Shown here one piece after another: positions 1-9,208 of a DNA stretch of 9,322 nucleotides (positions within the stretch are counted from its first letter, which is position 1; each line of letters starts with the position of its first letter). Both the position numbers and the translations under genes were made by a program. Source of the DNA: Rhizobacter sp. (GTDB lineage: Bacteria > Pseudomonadota > Gammaproteobacteria > Burkholderiales > Burkholderiaceae); NCBI GenBank assembly GCA_014379885.1, contig JACMKW010000694.1, positions 1 to 9,322 of the forward strand. The letters are read 5' to 3'. The notes under the pieces were generated by a model. It saw only the letters and a program-made list of their open reading frames with translations, was not told the origin of the DNA and did no database searches.

Positions 1-1198
<1,198 letters not shown>

Positions 1199-4984: not shown

Positions 4985-5974
4985 ATGCACACGCGAGTGG
5001 CAGTTGACGAGCCGTCTCGCGACGCAAGCGCCGCGGTATCGGCGGCCCCTCGCGCCGTGGTCGCCATCGTGACCTTGGGCGCGGCACTCGGGTTGACGTG
5101 GTGGGCGCTGCACCGGCAGTTCGGCGTCGTGTCCTGGCAGGGCGTCAAGTCAGCGCTGGCGGCCCAGCCCGCTATACACATCGCCGCCGCCGTGGCGCTC
5201 ACCGCGCTGAGCTTTCTGGCGCTGGCGGTGTACGACCTGATCGGCACCCGCGTGGCGGTGGGCCGGCGCGTGCCCGCCCGCACCGCGCTTTTCGCCGGCG
5301 CATCGGCCAACGCCATCTCGAACACACTGGGGTTTCACGCGCTGACGGGCAGTGCCGTGCGCGCGCGCATCTACCGAGGGGCCGGCCTTGCAGGCGCAGA
5401 TGTGGCACGCATCGTGTCGCTGTCGTGGCTCTCGCTGGCGCTTGGCTTTCTGGCCATGCTGTGTGTGGCAGCCTGGGTTCAGGCAGCCGTGGGCAGCACC
5501 CCGGCCGCCTCGCTTCAATGGGGGCTGGGCCTCGCCGCGCTGCTCTTGCTGTTGATTGCCTGGCTGGCGGCGGGGCAGCGGCAGTTGGTGGTTTTCAGGT
5601 TCCGCCAACCCCTGCCTTCGGCCCGCATGGCCTTGGCGCTGATGGCCACCGGGGCCGTGGAAAGCGCAGCGGCGATCGGTGCGTTGTATGTTCTATTGCC
5701 TGCGGACCTGGCACCTTCGTTCAGCCTCTTTGCCATCGGCTGCATCGGTGCGGTGGCGCTCGGGCTGGTGGCGCATGCACCCGGCGGCATCGGTGTCTTC
5801 GAGGCCAGTGTGACGGCCTTGCTCTCGGGCGCCGGGCGTGCCGACCTTCTGGCCGCCCTGCTGCTGTACCGCGCGGTCTACAACCTGCTTCCTTTCGCAC
5901 TCGCAATAACCGCGCTAGCGTGGCATGCAAGAAGCCAACGCAGTTCGCTCAGTTCGACGGCGGGTAGCGGCTGA
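4985..5974 (+). CDS. UPF0104 / MprF-type flippase-domain membrane protein
   Basis: This 329-residue inner-membrane protein matches the lysylphosphatidylglycerol synthase transmembrane (flippase) family, UPF0104/YbhN-like. It corresponds to the N-terminal half of MprF, without the synthase half. Signature segments are SNTLGFHALTGSAVRARIY (112-130), HAPGGIGVFE (264-273) and YRAVYNLLPF (295-304). About eight hydrophobic segments can be seen, at roughly 23-42, 64-85, 102-118, 143-168, 178-196, 216-238, 245-265 and 286-314. Members of this family are thought to move lipids or hydrophobic polyprenyl compounds across the membrane. It follows the DUF4336-like gene by 8 nt. The ATG at 4985 has only a weak GGGGC upstream; translational coupling is likely. 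Its last 26 bp overlap the convergent ATP-grasp gene. The lipid moved is unknown; the nearby OlsB-like acyltransferase makes an aminolipid an attractive but untested guess. Confidence 0.85.
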   Translation: MHTRVAVDEPSRDASAAVSAAPRAVVAIVTLGAALGLTWWALHRQFGVVSWQGVKSALAAQPAIHIAAAVALTALSFLALAVYDLIGTRVAVGRRVPARTALFAGASANAISNTLGFHALTGSAVRARIYRGAGLAGADVARIVSLSWLSLALGFLAMLCVAAWVQAAVGSTPAASLQWGLGLAALLLLLIAWLAAGQRQLVVFRFRQPLPSARMALALMATGAVESAAAIGALYVLLPADLAPSFSLFAIGCIGAVALGLVAHAPGGIGVFEASVTALLSGAGRADLLAALLLYRAVYNLLPFALAITALAWHARSQRSSLSSTAGSG

Positions 5975-7049
5975 TCAAGGCCTGTTGCCGAAGGTGATGC
6001 CGTGCGAGTGCGAGCCACCCCACCGGGCGGTGCCCCAGGCGGCGCATGGACTCGCCGATGGCGAAAAGGCGCCGTTGCTTGCGAAAGATGATGCCGTAGG
6101 CCTGCGTCAGCGTGAGCGAAGGGTCCCAGGCATGCACGGCTTCCGAGCCCGCACCATTGACTTCAATGATGGTGAACTCGCCCGCGCGCAAGCAAGCGGC
6201 CGACGCGTACTTCACGTCGAAGCGGCCCACGTGGAACTCCGTCATGTCTTTCGCAATGGCGTCGATGGCACGCGTCAGCTCGGCCGTGATGAGGGCATGG
6301 CCGCTGGCGTACATGCCGCCCACCCGCGTCGACCCCACGGTCGCAATGCGCACCGCCTGCCCGGCCGCGGGCACCTGGCACACATCGCAGCAGGGCTCGC
6401 TCGCACCATCGCGGCCCAGACGCCGCGCGCGCGGGTCGGCGGCGATCAGATCGGCCACCGAGTGCACGCCGTCACCCACCACGCGGGGGTAGTGGCGCAG
6501 CACCATGCCGATCACCTGCCCGCAGGCATCGCCGGGCCCGCGCATGTAGAAAATGCCCGCCTCGCCCGAGTCGGCGACCCATTGCTGGATGACCACCCGT
6601 TCACCCCGGGGGAAGGCGGCCAGGTAGTCGCGCATCGCCGCGCCGTCATCGACCCGGCGCACACCAAAACCGCACCAGCCGAGATCGGGTTTCACCACGA
6701 TCGGGTACGACAGGCGCGCCCGCGCCATCGCTGCCTCGGCATCGGCCACTGATTCGGCGCCCGCAGCCACCACGCAGGTCGTGGTGGCCGTGGCGCCGAG
6801 CGCCTGGGTTCCCATGATGCGCAGGTATTCCATCTTGCCTTCGCCGACCAGTCCGCCTGCGGTGATGCACGGGTTGGCGCAAGACGGCAACGTGATCGAA
6901 CCATGGCGAATCGACAGCCACGCCCACTGCGCCACCAGCGGCACCAGGTTCAGCCATTTCGGCAAGCGCTCGAGGCGCCCGACGCGGCCAGCCGCCAAGG
7001 ACGAATCTGCCGCGGGCAGCACCGGGCCGCCGACCAGCGTTGGCCTCAT
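5949..7049 (-). CDS. ATP-grasp domain ligase (fourth gene of operon)
   Basis: The 366-residue protein has an ATP-grasp fold, used to couple ATP to a carboxylate via an acyl-phosphate and join it to an amine or similar group. A conserved front (RLPKWLNLVPLVAQW, 28-42; ITAGGLVGEGK, 62-72) is followed by the nucleotide part. Lys120 in VVKPD starts the Gly-rich loop DLGWCGFGVRRV (122-133), and VVIQQWV (152-158) lies near the adenine site. Mg/substrate residues are in GRFDVKY (275-281) and IIEVNGAGSEA (294-304; Glu296, Asn298). VGSTRVGGMY (238-247) is probably in the substrate or phosphate site. It is not a standard D-Ala-D-Ala ligase. The ATG overlaps the stop of the GNAT gene as ATGA, with GGAG 7 nt upstream, so the two are translationally coupled. 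The 3' end overlaps the convergent flippase gene by 26 bp. The fold is firm; the joined substrates are unknown. Confidence 0.87.
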   Translation of the reverse strand: MRPTLVGGPVLPAADSSLAAGRVGRLERLPKWLNLVPLVAQWAWLSIRHGSITLPSCANPCITAGGLVGEGKMEYLRIMGTQALGATATTTCVVAAGAESVADAEAAMARARLSYPIVVKPDLGWCGFGVRRVDDGAAMRDYLAAFPRGERVVIQQWVADSGEAGIFYMRGPGDACGQVIGMVLRHYPRVVGDGVHSVADLIAADPRARRLGRDGASEPCCDVCQVPAAGQAVRIATVGSTRVGGMYASGHALITAELTRAIDAIAKDMTEFHVGRFDVKYASAACLRAGEFTIIEVNGAGSEAVHAWDPSLTLTQAYGIIFRKQRRLFAIGESMRRLGHRPVGWLALARHHLRQQALISRYPPSN

Positions 7050-7915
7050 GTCGAAGCTCCAAAAATGCGCCGGCTGTACCGCGCGGGCATGTCTTGAAGC
7101 TGCAGCATCATGGGGAAATCGGCCGTGTTGAAAGCCGCGTCCACGGCCGGAGGGCCGAGCAGCTTGCCGCCGCAGCGCAAGTAGCCCTTGATCAAGGCGG
7201 GCACTGCGGCCGTCACCCCGTCTTCGATGCGTGGCAACGGCAACGCCCTCCTGGGCCGCACCTGCCGCTCAGCCGCCACCAGGTGCGTCAGCTTCAGGCG
7301 GTGCCACAGACGCGCGGCCAGTTCGCCACCATCGGACATGCTGACGCTGGAGCAGCCAATCATCGACTGCATGCCCTGCTGCAGCATGTAGTCACCAAGC
7401 TCACGCCAGAGCGCCATCACCACCAGCCCGTTGCGCCAGGCCGGGTCAACACACACCCGCCCCATCTCCATCGTGCGTGGCAGCAGATCGCGCAGTGGCC
7501 CCAGGTCAAACTCGCTGTCGGTGTACAGGCTGCCGGCGCAGCGCGCGCCCTCGGGCGCGAGCACGCGGCAGGTGGCGATCACCTCGCCGTGACGAACGTT
7601 GTTTTGCGCGCGCACCACCAGATGCCCGCAGAACGCGTCAAAGGGGTCATCGTCATGCGCTGGCGGCACTCCCGGCGCAGCCTGCAGGCAAGCACCCATC
7701 TCCCCGGCGAAAACCCGGTAACGCAGGCGCTGCGCTTCGCGCACCTCGGCTTGGGTGCTGGCCCAGCCCACGCTGAAAGACGCCGTGGGCGCAGGTGCTT
7801 GCGAGTTTTCGTCGCCAACGTGAGCGGCGTCTAGCAGCGACGATGCCTCTGCCACCAGCGCGCCCGGCGTGCGGCGGCGGGCACGGTGTGCGGTGACGTG
7901 ATCGCTCAGCTGCAT
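7046..7915 (-). CDS. OlsB-like GNAT N-acyltransferase (third gene of operon)
   Basis: The 289-residue product belongs to the GNAT-fold group that includes OlsB, the ornithine-acyl-ACP N-acyltransferase, and related autoinducer-synthase-like enzymes. After a variable 45-residue front come VGWASTQAEVREAQRLRYRV (49-68), FDAFCGHLVV (92-101), EVIATCRVL (111-119), MEMGRVCVDPAWR (149-161) and the telling C-terminal block LIKGYLRCGGKLLGPPAVD (241-259) with FNTADF (262-267). Family members transfer a fatty-acyl chain, usually from ACP, to an amino-acid amine. The ATG at 7915 is chosen because upstream sequence in this frame is only the shadow of the DUF1989 gene. The first 10 nt overlap the end of that gene, and the stop overlaps the ATP-grasp start by 4 nt. 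No olsA partner is visible, so ornithine-lipid synthesis is not the best guess. The acceptor is unknown. Confidence 0.85.
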   Translation of the reverse strand: MQLSDHVTAHRARRRTPGALVAEASSLLDAAHVGDENSQAPAPTASFSVGWASTQAEVREAQRLRYRVFAGEMGACLQAAPGVPPAHDDDPFDAFCGHLVVRAQNNVRHGEVIATCRVLAPEGARCAGSLYTDSEFDLGPLRDLLPRTMEMGRVCVDPAWRNGLVVMALWRELGDYMLQQGMQSMIGCSSVSMSDGGELAARLWHRLKLTHLVAAERQVRPRRALPLPRIEDGVTAAVPALIKGYLRCGGKLLGPPAVDAAFNTADFPMMLQLQDMPARYSRRIFGAST

Positions 7916-8523
7916 GGCCGCCGCACGATCTCGTAGTCGATGGGTTTGAACGAGCCGTTGTTCGACATCTCCGCAGAGCAGGCAGTCAACGCGCAAACCA
8001 TGTCCATCTCGGCACGCAGCTCGATGTAGTCGCCCGCCTTGGAGCTCGGAGGTTCCACCTTGACGGTGCCATTCGGAGCCACCGTCACGTTCATGAAAAT
8101 GTTGAACGTGGTCGAGATCTGGCTCGGCTTGACGCCATGCGCTTGGAAGGCGTGGCTCAGGTTTTCGAAGCAGCTCGGGTGGTGCCCCTTGCAGCCGTAC
8201 AAGATGTGAAACATCTCCTGGCTGCATGGTGTGAGCAGAAAGTCGTGCCGCCCCACCGTGTCGGCCACGATGGTGAACATGTGCCGGCTGTCGTTCGAAT
8301 AAAGCACGTCGCCGGTGCTGAGATAGATCTTGCTCGCGTAGTCGATGCTGCGGCCCGATGAGAGGCTGCAGGCCAGGTCACCGTCCTTGAAGGCAAACAG
8401 GTCGGCCACCTGCTCGCCGAGCGGGTCGTACACGCGCAGCACTTCACTTCTGCGGATCTTGAATGAGACCCCGCTTTGCGGGGGCACCCGCTGGATGCCT
8501 TGTGTGATCTCAGCGACCTGCAC
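7906..8523 (-). CDS. DUF1989 / urea carboxylase-associated protein (second gene of operon)
   Basis: The 205-residue protein belongs to DUF1989, once called urea carboxylase-associated. Two members (CgdA/CgdB) are known as carboxyguanidine deiminases, so the family includes enzymes that cut guanidine C-N bonds. Seen here are LRVYDPLGEQVADLFAF (29-45), HDFLLTPC (93-100), a potential metal-binding CKGHHPSC (111-118), FNIFMNV (140-146), DYIELRAEMDMVCALTACSA (165-184) and SNNG. The GTG at 8523 is preferred, with GAGG about 5 nt upstream. The ATG at 8652 would add 43 residues that read as the shadow of the conserved end of the upstream gene. It overlaps the N-hydroxylase gene by 14 nt and the GNAT gene by 10 nt. 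A CgdA/CgdB pair is absent (one copy only), as is a urea/guanidine carboxylase, so assimilation of guanidine is unlikely here. The exact start is uncertain. Confidence 0.85.
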   Translation of the reverse strand: MQVAEITQGIQRVPPQSGVSFKIRRSEVLRVYDPLGEQVADLFAFKDGDLACSLSSGRSIDYASKIYLSTGDVLYSNDSRHMFTIVADTVGRHDFLLTPCSQEMFHILYGCKGHHPSCFENLSHAFQAHGVKPSQISTTFNIFMNVTVAPNGTVKVEPPSSKAGDYIELRAEMDMVCALTACSAEMSNNGSFKPIDYEIVRRPCS

Positions 8524-9208
8524 GGGCGCCTCGGGGTGCAAAGGGGCAGCGCCAAGCGGGTCCCGTGGGGCGGCCCGAATACTGCCGGGCCTCGGAGGCG
8601 TCACCGTGGTTGGCCAGGACCGGGTTGATGTCGCCTTGCAGCGCAACGTCACGCTTTCTGATCACTTTTTGCAGGCCGGCGTATTTGCCGCTGGCGCGAA
8701 AGTTCTCGAACTGGTCGTGAAAGTTGAACACCATGCAGGGCATGGGCGCACGGCGCGCAATGCGAGACGCGACGGGGCTCAAGCCGACCACGAAGAACGC
8801 GCGCCCGGCCACACTGAAAGAGAAATCTTCGGAGGCCGGGTCGTTGCTGACGGTCTTGTCCCATGCAAATCGGCGCCTGTCATGTTCATGCACGTCTTGC
8901 AGGTGCTGCCACATGAGATGTTCGAACTGCGCTTCGTTGTCGATCACGTCGTCGAACATCGCCACAAACGTGGTCGGCTCTTCACCGGGTTGCGCAAACT
9001 CTGCCGAGAACTTTTCCAGATCGGCGCACAGGCGCGCCACCTCGCCGCCCTGGCCCAAGCCGCCATACAGCTGGAACCTCGCCGCGCCCCGGTTGATGGC
9101 CGAGCGGGCGCCAACGCACGGGAAATCGGCCGATTGCACGTAGGCCTGGAATTGCTGCGTGAAATGCTGAACGTCCGCACGCGTCGACTGGTGGGCTGGT
9201 GGGTGCAT
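8510..9208 (-). CDS. YqcI/YcgG (GntA-type) heme N-hydroxylase homologue (first gene of operon)
   Basis: The 232-residue protein is a YqcI/YcgG-family member. Characterised relatives such as GntA of guanitoxin synthesis are heme-dependent enzymes that hydroxylate a guanidine nitrogen. Family features seen are FPCVGARSAINRG (29-41), MWQHLQDVHEHD (99-110, with candidate heme-ligand His), DPASEDFSFSVAGRAFFVVG (123-142), SPVASRIARR (144-153), MVFNFHDQFE (159-168), IRKRDVALQGDINPVLANHG (183-202) and SEARQYSGR (205-213) ending near WRCPF. This is the full usual plan, so it is not truncated. The ATG at 9208 fits the family start, though no clear Shine-Dalgarno precedes it. It leads a four-gene operon, its end overlapping the DUF1989 gene by 14 nt. 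Substrate could be arginine or another guanidine compound. The family call is firm; N-hydroxylation here is inferred. Confidence 0.86.
   Translation of the reverse strand: MHPPAHQSTRADVQHFTQQFQAYVQSADFPCVGARSAINRGAARFQLYGGLGQGGEVARLCADLEKFSAEFAQPGEEPTTFVAMFDDVIDNEAQFEHLMWQHLQDVHEHDRRRFAWDKTVSNDPASEDFSFSVAGRAFFVVGLSPVASRIARRAPMPCMVFNFHDQFENFRASGKYAGLQKVIRKRDVALQGDINPVLANHGDASEARQYSGRPTGPAWRCPFAPRGARAGR

What the first reader, a model, noticed from the sequence alone, without database searches (positions are those of the whole stretch)
5949..9208. Four-gene overlapping operon: candidate NRPS-free pathway to an acylated hydroxyguanidine-type metabolite
Seen: four minus-strand genes overlap by 14, 10 and 4 nt, so they are made together. 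Family knowledge: YqcI/YcgG enzymes N-hydroxylate guanidines, DUF1989 includes carboxyguanidine deiminases, OlsB-like GNATs acylate amino-acid amines, and ATP-grasp enzymes form amide bonds. Inference: guanidine N-oxidation, then C-N processing or rearrangement, then acylation and ligation would yield a small lipo-amino-acid, signal, metallophore or toxin. I know of no described pathway with just these four proteins and no NRPS.
Basis: partly seen in the sequence, partly recalled or inferred. Interest (0 to 1): 0.78.

Follow-up and report, generated by a model that had tools for sequence, protein, structure and literature searches.

The report
Four-gene oxidised-arginine lipid operon
Four overlapping bacterial genes, at least three of which appear to recur together on nine other DNA fragments, are predicted to oxidise an arginine-like amino acid and then would attach a fatty acid and a further building block to it, a likely assembly-line-free route to a small lipid-like molecule that our literature searches did not turn up.

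Summary
They are two joined modules. Module A is a YqcI/YcgG (GntA/AglA-type) heme-enzyme homologue plus a DUF1989 protein. This pair is itself conserved: 10 of 10 above-cut-off genome loci and the 14 closest plasmid records, in three phyla, usually without module B. Module B is a PF13444 N-acyltransferase plus an ATP-grasp ligase; it recurs without module A, in some loci beside lipid movers (LplT, VTT domain). The combination recurs: YqcI, GNAT and ATP-grasp share nine further contig lengths (0 such triples in 100 shifted controls). In related loci of the same ligase lineage the oxidation slot holds an HDO oxidase plus a methyltransferase. Best explanation: guanidine N-hydroxylation, DUF1989 processing, N-acylation and ATP-dependent ligation, giving a small acylated N-oxidised arginine-type amide, probably lysolipid-like. 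All chemistry is inferred. The GNAT misses the OlsB cut-off, DUF1989 misses the UAAP1/UAAP2 cut-offs, and no cupin or further guanitoxin gene is in view. YqcI + ATP-grasp + GNAT has a precedent (argolaphos), so this is a new variant of a known kind.

The parts
8510..9208 (-). YqcI/YcgG (GntA/AglA-type) predicted thiolate-heme guanidine N-hydroxylase, Cys31 as predicted heme ligand
7906..8523 (-). DUF1989 protein, predicted 3-Cys Zn enzyme acting on the N-oxidised guanidine
   Evidence: PF09347 190.7 bits; aligns with 3ORU and TMAO demethylase; the three Cys columns are present in 16 of 17 aligned sequences, the UAAP1 row lacking them; they are Cys100, Cys118 and Cys182 counted from GTG 8523; overlaps YqcI by 14 nt
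7046..7915 (-). PF13444 GNAT N-acyltransferase (OlsB-related, not OlsB by cut-off)
   Evidence: PF13444 89.6 bits; OlsB model NF052554 139.3 bits, cut-off 350; overlaps DUF1989 by 10 nt
5949..7049 (-). ATP-grasp ligase, cyanophycin-synthetase/LysX/RimK-like fold
4985..5974 (+). convergent MprF-flippase-like membrane gene, overlapping the ATP-grasp end by 26 nt; neighbour, not shown to belong
   Evidence: PF03706 32.4 bits, just under cut-off 33.4; NF033480 177.4 bits, cut-off 600; no tblastn match in the loci printed

Best explanation
The four overlapping genes are likely one operon of two joined modules and are predicted to make a small acylated, N-oxidised arginine-type amide, probably a lysolipid-like molecule, without an NRPS. 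Predicted steps: (1) the YqcI/YcgG protein would N-hydroxylate the guanidine of arginine or a close relative with a thiolate-bound heme (fold and ligand position shown by comparison with AglA; activity inferred). (2) The DUF1989 protein would use its Zn site to deiminate, cleave or rearrange the N-hydroxyguanidine (inferred from TMAO demethylase, a DUF1989 enzyme that acts on an N-O compound, and from carboxyguanidine deiminase, recalled to be a DUF1989 enzyme). (3) The PF13444 GNAT would acylate the alpha-amine with a fatty acyl group (inferred). (4) The ATP-grasp enzyme would activate a carboxylate and join an amine or amino acid to it (fold and conserved residues shown; substrates unknown). 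Shown directly: gene order, overlaps and the conservation of each module; the recurrence of the combination is read from equal contig lengths and one related locus.
For: Overlaps 14/10/4 nt. Nine further contig lengths are shared by YqcI, GNAT and ATP-grasp hits; 0 triples in 100 shifts. In one, the YqcI hit is JWQ07_420 and the ATP-grasp JWQ07_423, which leaves room for two genes if the tags run on. Pairwise distances of the three proteins over ten contigs correlate (Mantel r 0.78-0.83, permutation p 0.0002-0.0004), as co-inheritance predicts, though any genes inherited together would do so. YqcI is an AglA-fold protein with the heme-ligating Cys aligned (ligand from PMC12866846, passages). 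DUF1989 keeps the Zn cysteines (PMC12560246, passages). A related GNAT lies in the fetched stretch of 16 of 20 ligase loci, up to about 4 kb away. LplT lies beside the ligase in L043 and L044 (449.5 and 463 bits, cut-off 297). In the sister group of ligases the oxidation slot holds HDO + methyltransferase in 4 of 5 genome loci.
Against: No substrate or product evidence at all. In the 399-genome family sample only one genome (G044) has YqcI-DUF1989 beside the ligase, and there the GNAT is missing; its only GNAT hit is 34% identical and on another contig. The pair occurs without module B in 9 of 10 genome loci and in all 14 examined plasmid records, so its chemistry does not need acylation. No plasmid record holds even 80% of the four-gene stretch in one place. 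No lipid mover was found among the ten scanned window proteins except the convergent MprF-like one. DUF1989 was not traced on the nine contigs. AglA itself prefers a modified arginine and is nearly inactive on free arginine (PMC12866846, passages).
Confidence: 0.45

Rival explanations
1. The pair yields a simpler amino acid such as N-hydroxyornithine or N-hydroxycitrulline, and the GNAT makes an ornithine-lipid-like membrane lipid that the ATP-grasp caps: a variant aminolipid, not a secreted metabolite.
For: The best curated matches of the GNAT are OlsB models (139.3 and 128.4 bits); LplT-type transporters lie beside the ligase in L043, L044 and, just below the cut-off (278.4 of 297), L046; a VTT domain is fused to the ligase in Azospirillum.
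Against: OlsB cut-offs not reached; no O-acyltransferase family among the ten window proteins scanned.
Confidence: 0.25
2. YqcI-DUF1989 is an independent guanidine-handling or nitrogen-salvage pair that merely travels upstream of an unrelated lipid-ligase pair.
For: The pair has no ligase or GNAT nearby in 9 of 10 genome loci and 14 of 14 plasmid records; the DUF1989 relatives UAAP1/UAAP2 lie beside a urea carboxylase gene in Caballeronia.
Against: YqcI, GNAT and ATP-grasp share nine further contig lengths; the genes overlap; YqcI-linked ligases form one clade, 100/99 support, though sampling favoured that. No Rfam family, guanidine riboswitches included, reached its gathering score in 11 sources.
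Confidence: 0.15
3. The operon makes a graminine-like (C-diazeniumdiolate) lipid metallophore, with DUF1989 replacing the SznF/GrbD-type cupin.
For: YqcI proteins act with a second, SznF-like enzyme in graminine and chalkophomycin pathways (PMC6771848, PMC9679993, PMC10849742, passages); for chalkophomycin a heme enzyme is reported to replace an HDO domain, and here the slot before the ligase holds HDO or YqcI.
Against: No evidence that DUF1989 forms N-N bonds; no siderophore receptor or uptake family among the ten scanned window proteins.
Confidence: 0.12
4. It is part of a guanitoxin-type cluster, as the NCBIfam name suggests.
For: NF041366 270.5 bits, cut-off 145.
Against: None of the other nine scanned window proteins matches another step of that pathway (its gene list recalled), though the contig ends just upstream; the same name is given to the pair in Deinococcus, Chryseobacterium, Hymenobacter, Skermanella and sphingomonads without such genes in the stretches shown.
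Confidence: 0.01

Closest known systems
Argolaphos cluster, Streptomyces monomycini
   Same: YqcI/YcgG protein AlpD, ATP-grasp ligase AlpC and GNAT-fold proteins AlpF and AlpO in one cluster (PMC8976061, passages); same heme-enzyme fold as AglA of that species
   Different: Phosphonate pathway; AlpF is PF13480 and was proposed as an aminoacyl-tRNA ligase, not a PF13444 acyltransferase; no DUF1989 in the passages seen
Graminine module GrbD/GrbE and chalkophomycin ChmN/ChmM
   Same: A YqcI/YcgG enzyme with a second enzyme makes an N-oxidised amino acid from arginine (PMC6771848, PMC9679993, PMC10849742, passages)
   Different: The second enzyme is SznF-like, not DUF1989; NRPS assembly
Mangotoxin mbo operon
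   Same: NRPS-free oxidase + ATP-grasp logic on an arginine-containing peptide (PMC13185094, passages)
   Different: HDO oxidase with its own reductase; two ATP-grasps; no acyltransferase in the passages seen
Ornithine, glutamine and glycine aminolipid pathways (OlsB, GluB, GlsB)
   Same: PF13444 N-acyltransferase as first step (PMC11631085, passages)
   Different: Second step is an O-acyltransferase; OlsB cut-offs not reached here
DUF1989 enzymes: UAAP1/UAAP2 (recalled as carboxyguanidine deiminase) and TMAO demethylase
   Same: Same domain; three-Cys Zn site shared with TMAO demethylase and UAAP2
   Different: UAAP2 of Caballeronia is 31.4% identical; UAAP cut-offs not reached; no GcvT-like domain; more distant DUF1989 genes had no YqcI nearby in 6 of 6 records examined

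Membership tests
YqcI/YcgG heme guanidine N-hydroxylases (AglA/GntA) | Family profile match | tested here: met
   PF08892 186.7 bits, cut-off 27; NF041366 270.5 bits, cut-off 145
YqcI/YcgG heme guanidine N-hydroxylases (AglA/GntA) | AglA sandwich fold | tested here: met
YqcI/YcgG heme guanidine N-hydroxylases (AglA/GntA) | Heme-ligating cysteine (AglA Cys44) | tested here: met
   Cys31 invariant in 43 of 43, aligned to AglA Cys44 by profile at E about 0.001; ligand from PMC12866846, passages
YqcI/YcgG heme guanidine N-hydroxylases (AglA/GntA) | Binds heme and hydroxylates a guanidine | not testable with these tools
   needs protein
Guanitoxin cluster | Other gnt genes nearby | tested here: inconclusive
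   ten window proteins scanned, no such match (pathway list recalled), but the contig ends 114 nt upstream of the gene
DUF1989 | Profile match and three Zn cysteines | tested here: met
   PF09347 190.7 bits, cut-off 27; three Cys columns (Zn role from PMC12560246, passages)
UAAP1/UAAP2 | Curated cut-off of the models | tested here: not met
   UAAP2 119 vs 284.7 and UAAP1 98.4 vs 205.95 bits
TMAO demethylase | C-terminal GcvT-like domain | tested here: not met
   205 aa protein with the DUF1989 match only; 98 of 1100 bits
OlsB ornithine N-acyltransferase | Curated cut-off of the models | tested here: not met
   139.3 vs 350 and 128.4 vs 320 bits; PF13444 itself met
ATP-grasp ligases | Fold and conserved Lys/Asp/Glu/Asn positions | tested here: met
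Graminine (GrbD/GrbE) module | SznF/GrbD-type cupin partner in the gene set | tested here: not met
   none of the four genes, nor the other six scanned window proteins, matches a cupin family; the far upstream side is not on the contig
HDO + ATP-grasp pathways | HDO oxidase (PF14518) in the gene set | tested here: not met
   no match among the ten scanned window proteins; present in related loci

The most novel reading that the evidence does not exclude
YqcI-DUF1989 is a widespread, cupin-free two-enzyme module that first puts an N-O bond on a guanidine and then rearranges it at a Zn site, giving an N-N bonded (diazeniumdiolate-like) or NO-releasing amino acid; it is used alone across several phyla, often on plasmids, and in this operon it has replaced an HDO + methyltransferase to feed an NRPS-free acylating ligase that builds the first lipid of this kind.
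Probability: 0.12. Interest if true: 0.85.

Novelty: new variant of a known kind. Interest (0 to 1): 0.6.

Why it matters
It puts two unexplained, conserved gene pairs on the map with a direct test for each. The YqcI-DUF1989 pair asks what a DUF1989 enzyme does to a hydroxyguanidine, in a family (YqcI/YcgG) whose partners in the papers I saw include SznF-like enzymes but not DUF1989. The GNAT-ATP-grasp pair looks like a recurrent, perhaps undescribed way to build amino-acid lipids. The exchange of HDO + methyltransferase for heme enzyme + DUF1989 in front of one ligase lineage mirrors the HDO-to-heme replacement reported for chalkophomycin (PMC10849742, passages) and suggests that both feed the same kind of intermediate.

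Tried and rejected

Limits to tell: the nine contigs were found by equal contig length and shared source labels, not by reading their DNA. Only the best 120 hits per protein were compared (of 1447, 847 and 2615), so contigs with a weaker YqcI are missed. Besides the nine triples, one search shows 4 lengths with YqcI + ligase only, 3 with YqcI + GNAT only and 20 with ligase + GNAT only (one is the window itself, whose YqcI is listed under a shorter contig); short lengths among these can be coincidences. Length 6093 has two ligase entries; the one with the matching source was used. The YqcI-linked ligases in the tree were picked from hits close to the window, so their clade is partly built in; three end branches are long and the root is by midpoint. 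Two genomes with YqcI hits below the cut-off (G259, G287) and weaker extra hits in G001 and G219 were not examined. Of 25 family-sample genomes with a ligase match over 100 bits, 20 had their neighbourhood fetched, G262 only as fragments, and G165, G277, G104 and G084 only as the short stretches, which were not analysed. Some GNAT hits beside the 38-44% ligases are only 32-35% identical and could be ordinary OlsB genes. The label VTT comes from a fused VTT-ATP-grasp query and does not by itself show a VTT domain. L001 and L093 are the same locus; L118 and L123 come from two plasmids of one strain. One search lists 60 of 512 plasmid records.
Full report
Check of the observation. The four minus-strand genes are at the stated places and overlap by 14, 10 and 4 nt (ORFs, sequence). 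DUF1989 is taken from GTG 8523, as its homologues suggest; an earlier in-frame GTG at 8652 exists. The ATP-grasp gene also overlaps a convergent membrane gene by 26 nt. Ten window proteins were scanned; none matches an NRPS, cupin or O-acyltransferase family. No whole genome is held for the window; its nearest named protein relatives are Rhizobacter and Ramlibacter MAGs, so a Burkholderiales origin is inferred.

Module A. In a 399-genome family sample, 9 genomes (10 loci) hold a GntA-type protein over the cut-off, and all 10 loci have a DUF1989 gene next to it on the same strand (stretches). Among 512 plasmid records with a DUF1989 match, 60 were listed; the 14 listed at 49.5% identity or more to the window all have YqcI directly upstream on the same strand, and 6 of 6 examined at 36.4% or less do not. 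The 14 come from Comamonas (2), another Comamonadaceae bacterium, Deinococcus, Skermanella, Sphingobium (2), Sphingomonas (2), Novosphingobium (3, two from one strain), Hymenobacter and Chryseobacterium. In these 24 loci the ligase is found nearby once (L042) and the GNAT never, so the pair is a unit by itself. None of the 30 papers listed (of 42) holds both DUF1989 and YcgG.

Module B. The ATP-grasp has matches over 100 bits in 25 of 399 family genomes. Of 20 neighbourhoods fetched, 16 have a related GNAT in the stretch, adjacent or up to about 4 kb away. The six closest ligases (53-71% identity) are: one with YqcI-DUF1989-ATP-grasp and no GNAT (L042); four with an HDO and a methyltransferase nearby, in one of them on the other strand (L044-L047); one with GNAT and LplT only (L043). 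LplT is called at 449.5 and 463 bits (cut-off 297) in L043 and L044 and at 278.4, just below, in L046. Variovorax sp. PDNC026 has the order HDO, methyltransferase, ATP-grasp, GNAT, and Komagataeibacter plasmids have HDO and methyltransferase divergent from the ligase. In Azospirillum the ligase is fused to a VTT domain. These partners point to a lipid-like product, by inference.

The combination. Protein searches with YqcI, GNAT and ATP-grasp (best 120 each) share nine contig lengths above 4,000 bases; 100 shifted controls give no triple. At least one source label is common to all three hits in each of the nine, and three are named alike in all three searches (Rhizobacter once, Ramlibacter twice). 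The method agrees with one known case: the 14,185-base length is that of L042, which does carry YqcI and the ligase. In one Ramlibacter MAG, tags 420 (YqcI) and 423 (ATP-grasp) leave room for two genes if numbered in a row. Distances of the three proteins over ten contigs correlate at r 0.78-0.83, as for any genes inherited together. In a 22-row tree the YqcI-linked ligases are one clade (100/99); five HDO-linked ligases and L043 form its sister group and the HDO-linked Komagataeibacter ligase lies outside both if the VTT-linked ones are the root. This suggests one exchange of HDO + methyltransferase for YqcI + DUF1989; the sampling favours that result and some branches are long. Against it: no plasmid record covers 80% of the four-gene stretch, and only one genome of the family sample has the pair beside the ligase.

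How it likely works. Guanidine N-hydroxylation by gene 1, metal-dependent processing of the N-hydroxyguanidine by gene 2, N-acylation by gene 3 and ATP-dependent amide formation by gene 4. Each chemical step is inferred from relatives. Precedents: AlpD + ATP-grasp + GNAT proteins in argolaphos (PMC8976061, passages); YqcI proteins with SznF-like enzymes in graminine and chalkophomycin pathways (PMC6771848, PMC9679993, PMC10849742, passages); HDO + ATP-grasp in mangotoxin, in a paper that counts at least 25 kinds of HDO + ATP-grasp clusters (PMC13185094, passages); and an early prediction of oxygenase-cupin + ATP-grasp operons and of a conserved N-terminal Cys in YqcI/YcgG, there guessed to be an anchor (PMC2922099, passages). 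Searches for this gene set in print (an open-access library, capped listings judged by title, start of abstract and term counts) showed no paper that describes it.

Verdict. It is a new variant of a known kind: NRPS-free amino-acid N-oxidation plus ligation, with a new partner (DUF1989) and an acyltransferase.

Noticed in passing
window 929-1198 (+): A lone F0F1 ATP synthase subunit c homologue (NF005363 95.1 bits, cut-off 71); no other ATP synthase subunit was matched among the ten window proteins scanned.
   Followed up: no
window 4985-5974 (+): MprF-flippase-like membrane gene that ends 26 nt inside the ATP-grasp gene on the other strand; a possible lipid mover next to a possible lipid ligase, but no match in the related loci printed.
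   Followed up: partly
L044 3162-8263; L002 about 6762-11750: Gene row HDO, methyltransferase, ATP-grasp, GNAT, LplT in Variovorax-type genomes: a probable aminolipid or lipopeptide pathway that my searches did not find described (LplT profiled only in L044).
   Followed up: partly
L074 4118-8707; L008 2985-7455: Komagataeibacter plasmids carry the ligase divergent from HDO + methyltransferase, next to an ABC transporter (annotated FetB iron exporter in L008) and near ars genes.
   Followed up: no
L006 5879-7549; L075 5362-7080: Azospirillum proteins annotated only as VTT-domain carry this ATP-grasp at the C-terminal side.
   Followed up: partly
L115 3501-4075: Hymenobacter plasmid: the DUF1989 partner of gntA matches in two pieces and has no annotated gene, so it looks interrupted; described only.
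   Followed up: no
L092 and L093 (genome G001), L044: One Variovorax genome holds two YqcI-DUF1989 pairs and, elsewhere, the HDO version of the ligase row.
   Followed up: partly
L003, L004, L007, L112-L118, L122: The name 'guanitoxin biosynthesis heme-dependent pre-guanitoxin N-hydroxylase GntA' is given to many YqcI-DUF1989 pairs with no other guanitoxin genes in the stretches shown; the label is likely misleading.
   Followed up: partly
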